Of a DNA stretch of 64,000 nt, positions 55,265-61,467 are shown piece after piece. This stretch comes from Bradyrhizobium sp. dw_78 (GTDB lineage Bacteria > Pseudomonadota > Alphaproteobacteria > Rhizobiales > Xanthobacteraceae), in assembly GCF_018449525.1 (NCBI RefSeq), contig NZ_JAAVUS010000006.1:186001-250000 (forward strand), read 5' to 3'. A model generated the notes under the pieces. That model made no database searches. It was not told the DNA's origin and saw only the letters and a list, made by a program, of their open reading frames with translations. The position numbers and the translations under genes were made by a program. The number at the start of each line of letters is the position of its first letter. Position 1 is the first letter of the stretch.

Positions 55265-55633
55265 ATGCTCTATGCGATCCTTTGCTACCACGATGAAGAC
55301 CTCGTCGGTTCCTGGACCCAGGAACAGGATGCCGCGGTGATGCAGAAACTCGCCGTCGTGCAGGACAAATTGACCAGACAGGGACGGCTCGGCCCGGTAG
55401 CGCGGCTCCTGCCGACGACGGCGGCGACGACCCTGCGCAAGGAAAATCCGCCCGTCGTGCTCGACGGGCCCTTCGCCGAGACCAAGGAGCAATTGCTCGG
55501 CTTCTATATCGTCGATTGCAGGAATCTGGATGAGGCGCTCGATGTCGCCCGCGACCTCGGCGCCGCCAATCCCGGCGGCGCTTACGAGATCCGGCCCGTC
55601 GGCCTGCTCAATCCGGGAGGTCTGAAGCCGTGA
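55265..55633 (+). CDS. YCII-related DGPF-domain protein
   Basis: 122 aa. LYAILCYHDEDLV start, VVLDGPFAETKEQLLGFYIV with the DGPF hallmark, and a ferredoxin-like dimeric fold. Always seen with ECF42-type sigma factors, whose gene starts four bases before its stop (GTGA). The function of DGPF proteins is not established. Start supported by GGGAG 8 nt upstream. Confidence 0.93.
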   Translation: MLYAILCYHDEDLVGSWTQEQDAAVMQKLAVVQDKLTRQGRLGPVARLLPTTAATTLRKENPPVVLDGPFAETKEQLLGFYIVDCRNLDEALDVARDLGAANPGGAYEIRPVGLLNPGGLKP

Positions 55634-56913
55634 CCGACGTCGCCTGGATCGACGCCGCGCTGACCTCGGCGCGTCCCCAGGCGGTCGGCGCGCTGTTGCG
55701 CTACTTCCGCGATCTCGACATCGCCGAGGAGGCTTTCCAGAATGCCTGCCTGCGGGCGCTGAAAAGCTGGCCGCAAAACGGGCCGCCGCGCGATCCCGCA
55801 GGCTGGCTGATCATGGTCGGGCGAAATGCGGCCATCGACGATATCCGGCGCGGCCGCAAGCAGGAGCCGCTGCCCGAGGATGATGCGATCTCCGACCTCG
55901 ACGACACCGAGGAGGCATTGGCCGAACGTCTCGACGGCTCGCATTATCGCGACGACATCCTGCGGCTGCTGTTCATCTGCTGCCATCCCGAACTGCCGGC
56001 GACGCAGCAGATCGCGCTGGCGCTGCGCATTGTCTCGGGGCTTACCGTGAAGCAGATCGCGCGCGCCTTCTTGGTCAGCGATGCCGCGATGGAGCAGCGC
56101 ATCACCCGCGCCAAGGCGCGCGTCGCCGATGCGGAGGTGCCGTTCGAGGCGCCGGGCGCCGCGGAGCGCGCCGGGCGGCTCTCCGCCGTTGCCGCGATGA
56201 TCTACCTGATTTTCAACGAGGGCTATTCCGCGAGCGGCGACACCGCCGATATCCGCAACCCACTATGCGAGGAAGCGATCCGCCTGGCGCGGCTGTTGCT
56301 GCGGCTGTTTCAGAACGAGCCTGAGATCATGGGGCTGATGGCGTTATTGCTGTTGCAGCATGCCCGTGCCGCCGCACGCTTCGATGCCGATGGCGGATTG
56401 ATCCTGCTCGAGGATCAGGATCGCAATCTCTGGAATCAAACGCTGATCGCGGAGGGGCTGGCGCTGATCGACAAGGCGATGCGCCATCGCCGCAGCGGGC
56501 CCTACCAGATCCAGGCGGCGATCGCGGCCCTGCATGCCCGCGCCGCAAAGCCCGGGGATACCGACTGGAAACAGATCGATCTGCTTTATGGCGCGCTTGA
56601 GGTCATGCAGCCCTCGCCGGTGGTGACGTTGAACCGTGCGGTTGCGGTGTCCAAGGTGCGCGGGTCCGAGGCGGCGCTTGAGATGATCGAGCCACTGGGC
56701 GAGCGGCTGTCGAATTACTTTCATTTCTTCGGCGTGCGCGGTGCATTCCTGATGCAACTCGGCCGCCATGATGAGGCGCGCGTTGCCTTCGATCGCGCCA
56801 TCGCGCTTGCCAATACCACGGCGGAAGCCGCCCATATCCGCATGCATCTCGACCGTCTGATGCGCGAGGGGCGGCCGCAGGGCGCCAGGGCGGATAAGTC
56901 GCCGGCAAATTGA
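55630..56913 (+). CDS. ECF42-group RNA polymerase sigma factor with C-terminal extension
   Basis: 427 aa, far longer than ordinary ECF sigma factors. Sigma-2 region FRDLDIAEEAFQNACLRALK and GWLIMVGRNAAIDDIRR; sigma-4 region ATQQIALALRIVSGLTVKQIARAFLVSDAAMEQRITRAK. The remaining ~230 residues (about 190-420) are the helical, TPR-like extension of the group. ECF42 members lack a classical anti-sigma factor and pair with DGPF proteins, as here. Likely regulates a small regulon including its own operon. Confidence 0.93.
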   Translation: MTDVAWIDAALTSARPQAVGALLRYFRDLDIAEEAFQNACLRALKSWPQNGPPRDPAGWLIMVGRNAAIDDIRRGRKQEPLPEDDAISDLDDTEEALAERLDGSHYRDDILRLLFICCHPELPATQQIALALRIVSGLTVKQIARAFLVSDAAMEQRITRAKARVADAEVPFEAPGAAERAGRLSAVAAMIYLIFNEGYSASGDTADIRNPLCEEAIRLARLLLRLFQNEPEIMGLMALLLLQHARAAARFDADGGLILLEDQDRNLWNQTLIAEGLALIDKAMRHRRSGPYQIQAAIAALHARAAKPGDTDWKQIDLLYGALEVMQPSPVVTLNRAVAVSKVRGSEAALEMIEPLGERLSNYFHFFGVRGAFLMQLGRHDEARVAFDRAIALANTTAEAAHIRMHLDRLMREGRPQGARADKSPAN

Positions 56914-58223: not shown

Positions 58224-58517
58224 TCAAGCCGTGGTTCTGTTCTTGATGGCGCCAACAATGGCCGTAAGGACGGCGCCGGCAACGCCGCCGCCGGCCACCT
58301 GGCCGATGATGCTGCCGATATCCGGCGTCGAGGCGCCATTGGCGAGCAGCGGAATCAGCGTGCCGAGGATCTGTCCTCCGGCGCCGCCGCCGATGGCGCC
58401 TGCGATGGTGTTTCCAAGCGTACCGAGATCGATATTCTTCGCTGCGCCTGCGGCGACATTGCCGCCGACCGCGCCACTGATGACCTGAATGATCAGATTG
58501 ATGAGTAGTCCCGACAT
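58224..58517 (-). CDS. Small glycine-rich hydrophobic protein
   Basis: 97 aa, over half Gly, Ala, Ile, Leu and Val; repeats of the pattern GxxxGxxxG (GAVGGNVAAGAAKNIDLG, AIGGGAGGQILGTLI, IIGQVAGGGVAGAVL). No recognised family and no signal peptide. GAGGAG precedes ATG 58517, supporting expression. It may form amphipathic helices that insert into or assemble on membranes. Confidence 0.68.
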   Translation of the reverse strand: MSGLLINLIIQVISGAVGGNVAAGAAKNIDLGTLGNTIAGAIGGGAGGQILGTLIPLLANGASTPDIGSIIGQVAGGGVAGAVLTAIVGAIKNRTTA

Positions 58518-58803
58518 GACGTGATACTCCTCGCTCCGGTGTTTGAGGTTCAGCCCTGTCCGCGCACGACGCCGGACCATCGCCGCGTCACGGCAGAGCT
58601 TAGGCGTTTGGTCCGGGAAGTCATGCTGCGTGCGCGAAGAGGCGGGTGAATTGGCCGGCGAAATTGTTTTCAGGCTCCCACAACCTTTTTGAGCTGCGCC
58701 GCCTGACGCCGCGCATGGGCCGGTTCGACGCAATAAGGCCGCAGGGGGAGGCGAGATGCAGGGTCGATTGCGGCGCCCGTTAATCATCGGCTGTGCCGGT
58801 TGA

Positions 58804-58906
58804 TCTAGAGCATGTTCTGATTGAATCAGAACCGAAGCTCTCAATTCTTGTTTTGACGCGTTTTCTTCGCGCGAACCGGTATCCACTTCGCTCAAAAACG
58901 CTGTAG
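58804..58906. repeat. Rhizobiales-type ~100-bp repeat, family B copy 4
   Basis: TCTAGAGCATGTTCTGATTG start, TCAGAACC hairpin partner, ACGCGTTTTCTTC, CGCGAACCGG, and CTCAAAAACGCTGTAG end. It directly precedes the tetR operator, so any tetR promoter must lie in or next to it. The rest of the 58518-58942 spacer (425 bp) holds no gene. Confidence 0.8.
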
Positions 58907-58921
58907 TGACCTTTGCGGGCG

Positions 58922-58948
58922 GCTCATGTAAAAGCCATTTACATGAGC
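58922..58948. promoter_or_regulatory. Operator overlapping the TetR start codon
   Basis: Perfect inverted repeat with arms GCTCATGTAAA and TTTACATGAGC and a 5-bp spacer AGCCA. The ATG of the TetR gene (58943-58945) lies in its right arm. The same core (ATGTAAA-N5-TTTACAT) recurs at 59733-59751. Confidence 0.8.
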
Positions 58949-59665
58949 TGGAACAAAGAGCAGGGCCGCACCGAGCGCGGCTACCATCACGGCAATCTCA
59001 AGGAAGCGCTGTTGCAGGCGGCGCTCGACCTGATCGCGAAGAAAGGCCCGGCCGGGTTCACCTTCGCCGACGCGGCGCGTCTGGCCGGCGTCAGTCCGGC
59101 CGCGCCCTACCGGCATTTCCGCGACCGCGACGAATTATTGTCGAGCATCGCGCTGCGCGGCTTCGAACAGTTCGAGGCGATGTTGACCCATGCCTGGGAT
59201 GATGGCCGTCCGGAAACGGTTGCGGCGTTCGAGCGGGTCGGCAAGGCCTATCTCGCCTTCGCGCGCGAGGAGCCGGCATTCTATTCGGCGATGTTTGAAT
59301 CCGGGCTTCCTCTCGATCTTAACCCGGCGCTGCTTGCGGCCAGCGAGCGCGCGTTCAGCGTCGTCCGTGCGGCCGCGGAGCGCCTCGCCGCGTTGGCGCC
59401 GCCCGACGTGCCGCGGCCGCCGGCCCTGATGATGGCGCTGCACATCTGGTCGATGTCGCATGGCGTGGCGTCGCTGTTCGCGCGCGGCGATGCGGCGAGG
59501 CGCAAACTGCCGATGTCGGCCGACGATCTGCTGGAGGCCGAGGTTTTGATTTATCTGCGTGGGCTCGGTTTCCCGGTCGGCGGTGGGCCGGCCCAGCCAA
59601 CAGAGCGTGCCGATCAAAAGACCAAGGCCAGCCCTGCCTCCGGTCCCTGGGGCGCTCGCAAATAA
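58943..59665 (+). CDS. TetR-family repressor with WHG-type C-terminal domain
   Basis: 240 aa. Helix-turn-helix domain GYHHGNLKEALLQAALDLIA and FADAARLAGVSPAAPYRHFRDRDELL (about 12-60); the C-terminal part with HIWSMSHGVASLF is of the WHG ligand-binding class. ATG 58943 was chosen; TTG 58913 would place ten codons through the operator. The last ~30 residues are a polar tail. Predicted to repress itself and the next gene. Confidence 0.92.
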   Translation: MSWNKEQGRTERGYHHGNLKEALLQAALDLIAKKGPAGFTFADAARLAGVSPAAPYRHFRDRDELLSSIALRGFEQFEAMLTHAWDDGRPETVAAFERVGKAYLAFAREEPAFYSAMFESGLPLDLNPALLAASERAFSVVRAAAERLAALAPPDVPRPPALMMALHIWSMSHGVASLFARGDAARRKLPMSADDLLEAEVLIYLRGLGFPVGGGPAQPTERADQKTKASPASGPWGARK

Positions 59666-59705
59666 AGTTCCAGAAATAATTTGACGGGCGCCGGCTGCGC
59701 CTCGC

Positions 59706-59751
59706 TTGACAAAAACCCGGAATGGGTTAGGTATGTAAATGTTATTTACAT
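59706..59751 (+). promoter_or_regulatory. Promoter and TetR operator of the DUF2852 gene
   Basis: TTGACA (59706-59711), 16-bp spacer, TAGGTA (59728-59733), overlapped by ATGTAAA-TGTTA-TTTACAT (59733-59751), the same core as the operator at the TetR start. Bound repressor would cover the -10 region and start site. Confidence 0.75.
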
Positions 59752-59782
59752 TCACAACGGCGTGACGCCGATGGAGAGGGAA

Positions 59783-60265
59783 ATGGCCTACACCGCAGAT
59801 GTCAATCGATGGCGCGGCCCCGACAACGAGCCCTATCGGCCGCATTGGCGCGCGCAGCCCGGTTTGGTGATCGCGACCGTCTTAGGCTTCCTGCTGTGGT
59901 GGCCGGTCGGACTTGCCTTTCTCTTTTTCACACTCAGGAGCGCGAACATGGGTTGCTGGAATCATCAGGATCGCTGGCAGAACAAGATGGAGCGGATGCA
60001 GTACAGGATGGAGCGGATGCGCGACCGCATGGAGCAGCGCGGCTTTCCGTTCGGCGGCTTCCGCGGCTTCGGCCCGCCCTCGAGCGGCAACCGCGCCTTC
60101 GATGAATACCGCATGGAAACGCTGCACCGCCTCGAGGAGGAGCAGCGCGAATTCAGGGATTTCCTGGAGCGCCTGCGTCAGGCCCGGGACAAGGAGGAGT
60201 TCGACCAGTTCATGGCGCAGCACCGCCAGCGTCCGACTCCGCCGAACGATCAGCCGCAGGGCTAA
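59783..60265 (+). CDS. DUF2852 membrane protein
   Basis: 160 aa. One or two membrane helices (GLVIATVLGFLLWWPVGLAF, about 32-52), then a Met/Arg-rich coiled region (KMERMQYRMERMRDRMEQ), a Gly/Phe patch FPFGGFRGFG and a long charged helix (RLEEEQREFRDFLERLRQ). The DUF2852 family is of unknown function and is common in Rhizobiales. ATG 59783 has GGAGAGGG just upstream. It is the only structural gene seen under the TetR circuit. Confidence 0.88.
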   Translation: MAYTADVNRWRGPDNEPYRPHWRAQPGLVIATVLGFLLWWPVGLAFLFFTLRSANMGCWNHQDRWQNKMERMQYRMERMRDRMEQRGFPFGGFRGFGPPSSGNRAFDEYRMETLHRLEEEQREFRDFLERLRQARDKEEFDQFMAQHRQRPTPPNDQPQG

Positions 60266-60381
60266 AACATGATCGGAGCTAAAACATAATTCCGAAAGGT
60301 CGAGACCGGCGTTCGGAAAAGGGGGGCTTGCCCCAATCAAGATCAGACCCTGAGATTTAAGTTTTACGCCCTCGATCCCAT
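60266..60381. other. Spacer after the DUF2852 gene
   Basis: No gene seen. An AACATGATCGGAGCTAAAAC / AACATAAT tandem-like stretch at 60267-60292 follows the stop directly. Confidence 0.4.
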
Positions 60382-60456
60382 ACCCTCAGGCCTAGCGCCC
60401 CCAAACCTGAGGGCTACCCCCGCCGCCCACCTGCTCCCGCGGGTGGGCGGCTTTCT
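60360..60456 (+). ncRNA. Candidate two-hairpin RNA ending in a terminator
   Basis: Hairpin 1: CCCTCAGG (60383-60390) / CCTGAGGG (60406-60413), 8 bp perfect with a C-rich 15-nt loop. Hairpin 2: GCCGCCCACC (60422-60431) / GGTGGGCGGC (60442-60451), 10 bp perfect, followed by TTTCTT, a good terminator. It could be the 3' end of the DUF2852 mRNA or an independent small RNA; the C-rich loop is suited to pairing with Shine-Dalgarno sequences. Confidence 0.4.
60422..60456 (+). terminator. Intrinsic terminator
   Basis: The 10-bp GC-rich stem described for the RNA candidate, followed by TTTCTT; separates the TetR/DUF2852 unit from tolQ. Confidence 0.75.
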
Positions 60457-60753
60457 TGTGCCGGTAAAACTATGCCCCGCGGCGGCATGTCGGCGGGATG
60501 GCGCCTTTTGAAATCCCCTGTGGTAACTTCGCCTTAACCATGATTAGCGTCTGGTTAGTGACGTAAGGACGCGCGGACAGCCCTTGTTTTGACATGTTGG
60601 CAGGGAATGCAGGCTTCCGGCTTTGGACGGGCCTCCCATGCGACACAAAAAGGCTCTTGTGCGCTTTCCCGCGCGCCAGACGCGCGGCTGTGGGACCGGC
60701 AGCGATGCTCCCGGAGATTTTGGGACACATGCGTTGAAGAGGATACCGATAAA
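60457..60753 (+). other. tolQ upstream region
   Basis: 297 bp with no gene. AT-richer sequence TTAACCATGATTAGCG and TGGTTAGTGACG around 60535-60565 may carry the tol promoter, but no box pair is convincing. A GAAGAGGA stretch just before tolQ supplies its ribosome-binding site. Confidence 0.45.
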
Positions 60754-61467
60754 ATGAATCCGGCCGACGTGGCTCAGTCAGCTTTGCCGATCGCATCCGG
60801 CGACGTGTCGTTGATCGCATTGTTTCTGCAGGCCGCATGGATCGTCAAAGTGGTCATGTTGGGTCTGCTGGCCTGCTCCGTGTGGGTCTGGGCGATCGCA
60901 ATCGACAAGATCTTCCTGTACGGGCGCACCAAGCGTTCCATGGACCGGTTCGAGCAGGCGTTCTGGTCCGGCCAGTCGATCGAGGAGCTTTACCGCACGC
61001 TGTCGGCCAAGCCGACGCAATCGATGGCGGCCTGTTTCGTCGCCGCGATGCGCGAATGGAAGCGGTCGTTCGAAAGCCAGGCGCGGTCTTTCGCAGGACT
61101 TCAGATGCGGATCGAAAAGGTCATGAACGTTTCCATCGCCCGTGAAATCGAGCGGCTGGAGCGCCGGCTCTTGGTGCTGGCGACCGTCGGCTCGGCGGGG
61201 CCGTTCGTCGGCCTGTTCGGCACCGTCTGGGGCATCATGTCGAGCTTCCAGTCGATCGCCGCCTCGAAGAACACGTCGCTGGCGGTGGTGGCGCCCGGCA
61301 TCGCGGAGGCGCTGTTTGCCACCGCGATCGGCCTTATCGCCGCCATTCCAGCGACTATTTTCTACAATAAGTTCACGTCCGAGGTGAACCGGCAGGCGCA
61401 GCGGCTGGAAGGATTCGCCGACGAATTTTCAGCGATCCTGTCGCGCCAGATCGATGAGCGGGCATGA
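60754..61467 (+). CDS. tolQ: Tol-Pal proton channel subunit TolQ
   Basis: 237 aa, three membrane helices: first at about 30-50 (AAWIVKVVMLGLLACSVWVW), the others in the family core GSAGPFVGLFGTVWGIMSSF and APGIAEALFATAIGLIAAIP. With TolR it uses the proton gradient to energise TolA and keep the outer membrane attached during division. ATG 60754 follows GAGGATACCGATAAA. Confidence 0.96.
   Translation: MNPADVAQSALPIASGDVSLIALFLQAAWIVKVVMLGLLACSVWVWAIAIDKIFLYGRTKRSMDRFEQAFWSGQSIEELYRTLSAKPTQSMAACFVAAMREWKRSFESQARSFAGLQMRIEKVMNVSIAREIERLERRLLVLATVGSAGPFVGLFGTVWGIMSSFQSIAASKNTSLAVVAPGIAEALFATAIGLIAAIPATIFYNKFTSEVNRQAQRLEGFADEFSAILSRQIDERA

What the first reader, a model, noticed from the sequence alone, without database searches (positions are those of the whole stretch)
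58922..59751. Two matching operators define an autoregulated TetR / DUF2852 module
The sequence shows an 11-bp perfect inverted repeat (arms GCTCATGTAAA and TTTACATGAGC) overlapping the tetR start, and the same core ATGTAAA-N5-TTTACAT over the -10 region of the DUF2852 gene. Both have the same 5-bp spacer. Two independent sites of one rare motif, one at each gene, make direct control by this TetR likely. The DUF2852 target is a Met/Arg-rich membrane protein of unknown function, so this looks like an undescribed inducible envelope circuit.
Basis: partly seen in the sequence, partly recalled or inferred. Interest (0 to 1): 0.72.

Follow-up and report, generated by a model that had tools for sequence, protein, structure and literature searches.

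The report
TetR switch dedicated to a DUF2852 gene
A DNA-binding repressor and one small membrane-protein gene carry matching DNA switches that have been kept together across many alphaproteobacteria, so this is very probably a real, dedicated on/off circuit, although what the protein does is still unknown.

Summary
Both palindromes are where stated and are the only exact copies of ATGTAAA-N5-TTTACAT in the 6.04-Mb genome (about 0.0008 expected). In an order-wide set, 47 of 48 genomes with a TetR ortholog carry the site at DUF2852, against 1 of 24 without; that one has an interrupted TetR gene. In a second sample, nearly all from other orders, 14 of 14 against 0 of 4. The site stays at DUF2852 even where tetR lies elsewhere (441 kb away in one genome).

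New here: (1) the DUF2852 operator is a 25-bp double palindrome, two 19-bp sites shifted by 6 bp, suggesting two dimers; the tetR site is single. (2) The tetR site covers a probably leaderless start codon. (3) DUF2852 is the more constant target; 6 of 28 distant genomes lack a tetR site. (4) The probable B. diazoefficiens ortholog is induced in microoxia and bacteroids (published table).

DNA binding, inducer and DUF2852 function are untested; 'envelope' is unproven. A new member of a known kind, unusually deeply conserved.

The parts
58906..58911 (+). probable -35 of tetR (GTGACC)
   Evidence: GTGAC found at -45..-25 in 73 of 81 close loci including the window; inference
58929..58934 (+). probable -10 of tetR (TAAAAG), inside the operator
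   Evidence: 17-nt spacing from GTGACC; inference. The generic sigma-70 scan found no promoter in 58800-60760
58922..58948 (.). tetR operator: 11-bp perfect arms, N5; 19-bp core 58926-58944; covers the tetR start codon
   Evidence: core with at most 2 mismatches in 81 of 81 close loci, at -17 in 79
58943..59665 (+). TetR-family repressor, 240 aa, TetR_N + TetR_C_33
   Evidence: Pfam PF00440 and PF13305 above cut-off; AlphaFold model, helical, pLDDT 78, matches TetR structures
59706..59711 (+). probable -35 of the DUF2852 gene (TTGACA)
   Evidence: CTTGAC in 90% or more of 74 distinct close sequences; inference
59729..59737 (+). probable -10 region of the DUF2852 gene (AGGTATGTA), overlapped by the operator
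   Evidence: 17-20 nt from the -35; inference
59733..59757 (.). DUF2852 operator: 25-bp double palindrome (19-bp core 59733-59751 plus a second, 6-bp-shifted site 59739-59757)
   Evidence: consensus ATGTnAATGTnAnnnACATTnACAT, 1 mismatch of 19 here (L215)
59783..60265 (+). DUF2852 protein, 160 aa, one predicted membrane helix (about residues 26-55) with a WWPVG kink, basic/Met-rich linker, C-terminal GNxAFDxYR...EFDxFM region
   Evidence: PF11014 144.5 bits, cut-off 22.5; hydropathy; model confident mainly in the helix
60422..60451 (+). intrinsic-terminator-like hairpin after DUF2852 and before tolQ (60754)
   Evidence: 13-pair stem with T-rich tail; consensus match, function inferred

Best explanation
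A dedicated, mostly local repressor circuit. The TetR-family protein binds ATGTnA half-sites. At the DUF2852 promoter it occupies a 25-bp double palindrome at and just downstream of the -10, probably as two dimers shifted by 6 bp, and blocks transcription. At its own gene it binds one 19-bp palindrome that covers the -10, transcription start and start codon of a probably leaderless mRNA, limiting its own level. An unidentified small ligand, linked in Bradyrhizobium to low oxygen or the bacteroid state, releases it and DUF2852 is made. Shown here: the sites, their rarity, their conservation and their dependence on presence of TetR. Inferred: binding, repression rather than activation, two dimers, leaderless mRNA, ligand.
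For: Only two exact sites in the genome. Close loci: DUF2852 site with 0-1 core mismatches in 80 of 80 assessable loci including the window; tetR site with at most 2 in 81 of 81 (these are the best 80 of 242 loci found, plus the window; L083 ends before DUF2852). Family scan: exact motif in 103 of 198 genomes, reversed control in 1 as I read the table. Order set: 47 of 48 TetR+ genomes have the site at DUF2852 against 1 of 24 TetR-; reversed control 0 in both (Fisher p = 1.5e-16, uncorrected for phylogeny). The TetR- exception G403 does hold a TetR homolog in an interrupted frame. Second set (19 of the 21 class genomes with DUF2852; all but one from other orders): 13 of 13 loci with adjacent TetR have it, plus G505 whose TetR is 441 kb away; 0 of 4 assessable TetR- genomes. 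Unlinked cases G235 and G443 keep it at DUF2852. Double palindrome: 46 of 46 loci with TetR over 51% identity have at most 2 of 19 mismatches, 2 of 10 with more divergent TetR; tetR sites have 4-8. Residues S51, A54, P55, Y56, R57, H58, in the expected recognition-helix region, are invariant in 34 diverse TetRs. An SD-like 5-mer precedes 0 of 81 close and 0 of 28 distant tetR starts but 114 of 149 DUF2852 starts.
Against: No binding or expression data for this TetR turned up in the paper searches. The pairing is not one to one: 6 of 85 TetR+ genomes of the order, all in family f20 and 48-54% identical, have no DUF2852, and no site lies near the TetR of the one I read (G398, L191). G216, also f20, has only weak sites. 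95 of 198 family genomes lack an exact site; I did not sort variants from absence. A perfect double palindrome lies at a contig end in G364, whose best TetR match is weak. In 6 of 28 assessable distant genomes, and 4 of 13 in the class set at up to 2 mismatches, the tetR start has no site, so autoregulation is not general. The model shows no helix at residues 48-61 where the recognition helix is expected. The microoxia link is from another species, ortholog identity inferred. Two-dimer binding rests on sequence pattern only; the pattern was read from the order set, so only the second set tests it independently (at most 1 mismatch in 11 of 13).
Confidence: 0.87

Rival explanations
1. The sites belong to another, perhaps global, regulator that happens to control both genes; TetR is a bystander.
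For: The motif also occurs exactly at a few loci with neither this TetR nor DUF2852 detected, e.g. L184, L185 and L186; no binding data.
Against: Only these two genes carry it in the genome; the site is absent where TetR is absent and follows TetR presence even when unlinked. L184 lies beside a different TetR gene.
Confidence: 0.06
2. The TetR is an activator, or binds as a single dimer at DUF2852 and the second pair of half-sites serves another purpose (e.g. promoter geometry).
For: Some TetR-family proteins activate (recalled). The window's fourth half-site departs from the consensus (TTCACAA, not TTnACAT). Loci with TetR at or below 51% identity lack the double form in 8 of 10.
Against: The operator overlaps the probable -10 downstream of a near-consensus CTTGAC -35, a repressor position; all four half-sites with the 6-bp shift are conserved across several orders.
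Confidence: 0.25
3. The conserved sequences are only promoter or start-codon elements, not operators.
For: The tetR site contains the ATG; the DUF2852 site overlaps the probable -10.
Against: DUF2852 genes of genomes without TetR lack the motif; conservation is palindromic and extends outside the hexamers.
Confidence: 0.03

Closest known systems
Classical autoregulated TetR-family repressor with an adjacent target gene
   Same: TetR_N HTH, helical ligand domain, palindromic operator-like sites at own and target gene
   Different: Target is a single small membrane protein of unknown function, not an efflux pump or enzyme; genes are head to tail with separate promoters (inferred), not divergent
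QacR / CprB type (dimer of dimers on one operator)
   Same: Long operator of overlapping palindromes at the target gene; 25 bp here against 28 bp for QacR and 22 bp for CprB (passages of PMC4150764)
   Different: Own gene has only a single-palindrome site; two-dimer binding untested; QacR is not among the 60 of 70 solved matches shown
PDB 3on2, Rhodococcus RHA1 TetR-like protein of unknown function
   Same: Best solved relative by sequence (E 1.5e-16) and by fold
   Different: From Rhodococcus, 28-31% identical in the fold alignment; entry titled as of unknown function
DUF2852 family (PF11014): bll7160 of B. diazoefficiens and BR2114 of Brucella suis
   Same: Same family; bll7160 is probably the ortholog, since 78 of 79 Bradyrhizobium genomes hold one copy
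   Different: No regulator was named for them in the passages I saw (PMC6515984, PMC6377625)

Membership tests
TetR family of regulators | N-terminal TetR_N helix-turn-helix | tested here: met
   PF00440 40.6 bits, cut-off 24; the model, however, shows no helix at residues 48-61
TetR family of regulators | helical C-terminal ligand/dimer domain | tested here: met
   PF13305 TetR_C_33 54.6 bits, cut-off 26.8; model matches TetR structures
TetR family of regulators | binds palindromic operators at its own and target promoters | not testable with these tools
   Sites and co-conservation shown; binding needs experiment
QacR-like dimer-of-dimers operators | two overlapping palindromes in one operator | tested here: met
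   DUF2852 operator, 46 of 46 loci with TetR over 51% identity; not met at the tetR site
QacR-like dimer-of-dimers operators | two dimers bind the operator together | not testable with these tools
   needs footprint, ITC or structure
DUF2852 (PF11014) | profile score above curated cut-off | tested here: met
   144.5 bits against 22.5
envelope-stress systems | product in the envelope and induction by envelope damage | tested here: inconclusive
   one hydrophobic helix; tolQ downstream in 35 of 65 close loci with room and in 1 of 40 distant 8-kb-or-shorter loci; induction not testable

The most novel reading that the evidence does not exclude
TetR and its DUF2852 partner are an ancient alphaproteobacterial switch with a single-target regulon. 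A two-dimer operator makes the target respond sharply while a one-dimer operator on the start codon of a leaderless tetR mRNA sets the repressor level. The switch opens in low oxygen or inside the host, and DUF2852 remodels the inner membrane or Tol-linked envelope then.
Probability: 0.2. Interest if true: 0.65.

Novelty: new member of a known kind. Interest (0 to 1): 0.45.

Why it matters
It gives a family of unknown function (DUF2852, in 231 of 297 genomes of the order) a probable regulator, an operator sequence and a probable inducing condition in those lineages that have the TetR (79 of the 231), so function and ligand become testable with one deletion and one gel shift. The pairing of a double operator at the target and a single one at the regulator would be a clean natural case of unequal operator strength.

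Tried and rejected
Rejected: a wider regulon in this genome. Beyond the two genes no further site stands out; up to 2 mismatches the genome gives 3 sites against 5 control sites. Three extra sites that I read in other genomes (L184, L185, L186) lie by unrelated genes, another TetR or a contig end. In the order-wide scan at up to 1 mismatch 118 of 297 genomes match, but the reversed control also rings in a number of them, so that scan was not used as proof.

Rejected: a conserved operon or fixed synteny with tol-pal. tolQ follows in 35 of 65 close loci with at least 4.2 kb downstream and in 1 of 40 distant loci; a terminator-like hairpin lies before tolQ.

Led nowhere: the DUF2852 model is confident mainly in the membrane helix, and no solved chain matches DUF2852 better than E 0.11. 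The generic promoter scan found nothing. NCBIfam gave no match over a cut-off for either protein. Paper searches: DUF2852, 2 papers; bll7160/bll7161, 1 paper; motif with TetR, nothing relevant among the 15 listed of 52; 'WHG domain' with TetR, none. So no report of this pair was found in that open-access library; most subscription papers are not in it.

Caveats on counts: the 72 genomes are not a random draw. They are the 30 best DUF2852 matches, then one or two listed genomes per family, then five more chosen as TetR+; that is 48 of the 79 genomes with both genes and 24 of the 152 with DUF2852 only. Families whose DUF2852 match was not listed with coordinates were mostly not fetched. Genomes fetched twice (G429, G234, G474) were counted once, but one search counts rows. 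L126 (contig cut at tetR) was left out of the tetR-site count. G345's apparent unlinking may be a contig break, because both genes lie near contig ends; G422 is uncertain for the same reason. G599 was not fetched; L228 starts at a contig edge and was left out of the 0 of 4.

Full report
What was claimed and what is there. The two palindromes exist as described. The tetR site (58922-58948) has perfect 11-bp arms and a 5-nt spacer, and the DUF2852 site carries the same 7-bp half-sites at 59733-59751. They are the only exact copies in the 6.04-Mb genome, against 7.7e-4 expected from base composition. At 2 mismatches the genome has 3 sites and 5 control sites, so weaker sites cannot be told from noise.

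Genes. The upstream gene (58943-59665) is a TetR-family protein with TetR_N and TetR_C_33; the downstream gene (59783-60265) is DUF2852. They are head to tail, 117 bp apart, and a terminator-like hairpin at 60422-60451 lies between DUF2852 and tolQ. Where both genes were found in one locus they are on the same strand in 122 of 122 rows (a few genomes appear twice).

Close relatives. In the 80 best of 242 named loci (mainly Bradyrhizobium, with Rhodopseudomonas, Afipia, Tardiphaga, Nitrobacter) plus the window, the tetR site has at most 2 core mismatches in 81 of 81 and sits at -17 from the ATG in 79. The DUF2852 site has 0 or 1 in 80 of 80 (L083 ends before the gene). A CTTGAC -35 is nearly invariant ahead of the DUF2852 site. 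In the family, 103 of 198 genomes have an exact site and 95 do not; the reversed control rings in one, as I read the table. I did not sort the 95 into variant sites and absent genes; one of them, G022, has a site with 1 mismatch at DUF2852 (L140).

Distant relatives. DUF2852 occurs in 231 of 297 genomes of the order and TetR at E at most 1e-35 in 85 of the same 297; 79 have both, 152 DUF2852 only, 6 TetR only, 60 neither. The six TetR-only genomes all belong to family f20 with 48-54% identical TetRs, so there the homolog may serve another target. Among 72 genomes whose DUF2852 upstream region I read, 47 of 48 with TetR have the site (double palindrome with at most 2, or core with at most 1 mismatch) and 1 of 24 without; the reversed control gives 0 in both. 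The one exception without TetR, G403, proved to hold a TetR homolog in two pieces in different frames. The exception with TetR, G216 (f20), has weak sites. Families f13 and f29 each contain both kinds of genome, and the site follows TetR. The test is not corrected for relatedness.

A second sample. After the motif was fixed, DUF2852 was sought across the class: 21 of 142 genomes, all but two outside the order. Of 19 loci read besides the window's own, 13 have TetR next to DUF2852 and all 13 have the site by the same rule. G505 has the site with its TetR 441 kb away. Of five whose best TetR match is no better than 1.4e-31, four could be assessed and none has it. Unlinked pairs also occur in G235 and G443, and the site stays at DUF2852.

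The DUF2852 operator is double. Aligning distant loci shows ATGTnAATGTnAnnnACATTnACAT, two 19-bp palindromes shifted by 6 bp. All 46 loci whose TetR is over 51% identical to the window's have it within 2 of 19 mismatches; of 10 with more divergent TetR only 2 do, and 8 have the single core within 1 mismatch. In the second sample alone it is within 1 mismatch in 11 of 13. tetR sites differ from it at 4-8 positions. This would explain why, in the close loci, the five 'spacer' bases of the DUF2852 site do not vary while those of the tetR site do.

The tetR site covers the start codon. The offset of -17 recurs in 20 of 23 distant rows with a site. An SD-like 5-mer precedes 0 of 81 close and 0 of 28 distant tetR starts, but 114 of 149 DUF2852 starts. 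With GTGAC about 35 bases upstream (73 of 81) the simplest reading is a leaderless mRNA with -10 and start inside the operator. This is inference. In 6 of 28 assessable distant genomes there is no tetR site, and in the class set a tetR core within 2 mismatches is seen in 9 of 13, so DUF2852 is the more constant target.

Structure. The TetR model (pLDDT 78) is helical and its best solved match is 3on2, of unknown function. It shows no helix at residues 48-61, where the recognition helix is expected, so the model says nothing about DNA contacts; the residues there are nonetheless invariant in 34 diverse relatives. The DUF2852 model is confident mainly in one long hydrophobic helix.

Physiology. 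In B. diazoefficiens the DUF2852 protein bll7160 is listed as raised in microoxia (log2 2.5 protein, 2.1-fold transcript) and 4.9-fold in soybean bacteroids, and is not marked as a NifA+RpoN1 or FixK2 target (PMC6515984, one passage and part 1 of section 18). As 78 of 79 Bradyrhizobium genomes hold one DUF2852, bll7160 is probably the ortholog; I did not see its sequence or neighbours. In Brucella suis a mapB mutant has less of the DUF2852 protein BR2114 (PMC6377625, one passage). These hint at an inducible membrane or periplasmic role but do not prove it.

Verdict. A real and deeply conserved dedicated repressor-target pair. It works like an ordinary TetR repressor, perhaps QacR-like at its target. 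What is new is the pair, its operator and its spread, not the kind of system.

Noticed in passing
window 58869-58891 (also 8700, 31475): A dispersed repeat (..GCGCGAACCGGTATCCACTTCGC..) lies just upstream of tetR; two more copies with 2 mismatches are in the window.
   Followed up: partly
window 55630-56913: Sigma-70 region 2/4 protein with DUF6596 (an ECF-type sigma factor by my reading), about 2 kb upstream of tetR.
   Followed up: no
window 58224-58517 (minus): Small glycine/alanine-rich 97-aa ORF, no Pfam or NCBIfam match at E 0.01.
   Followed up: no
L185 2392-2441: Two ATGTAAA/TTTACAT-type palindromes 31 bp apart between divergent ORFs, in a genome with no match to this TetR at E at most 1e-10: perhaps another regulator with a similar operator.
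   Followed up: partly
L184 2906-2924: Exact 19-bp motif just upstream of a different TetR-like ORF and near a divergent aminotransferase-like ORF (both names are my reading of the translations).
   Followed up: partly
L186 1-80: A perfect double palindrome (minus strand) and an exact 19-bp site at a contig start, in a genome whose best match to this TetR is weak (E 8.8e-17); the gene it serves may lie off the contig.
   Followed up: partly
L203 / L208 (genome G403): TetR homolog split between two frames while its DUF2852 keeps a perfect operator (L168); pseudogene or assembly error.
   Followed up: partly
L191 (genome G398, family f20): A 48% identical TetR with no DUF2852 in the genome and no site nearby: possibly re-purposed or a different orthologous group.
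   Followed up: no
L127 and L135 (both family f2): A second DUF2852-like C-terminal piece lies downstream of the main DUF2852 gene.
   Followed up: no
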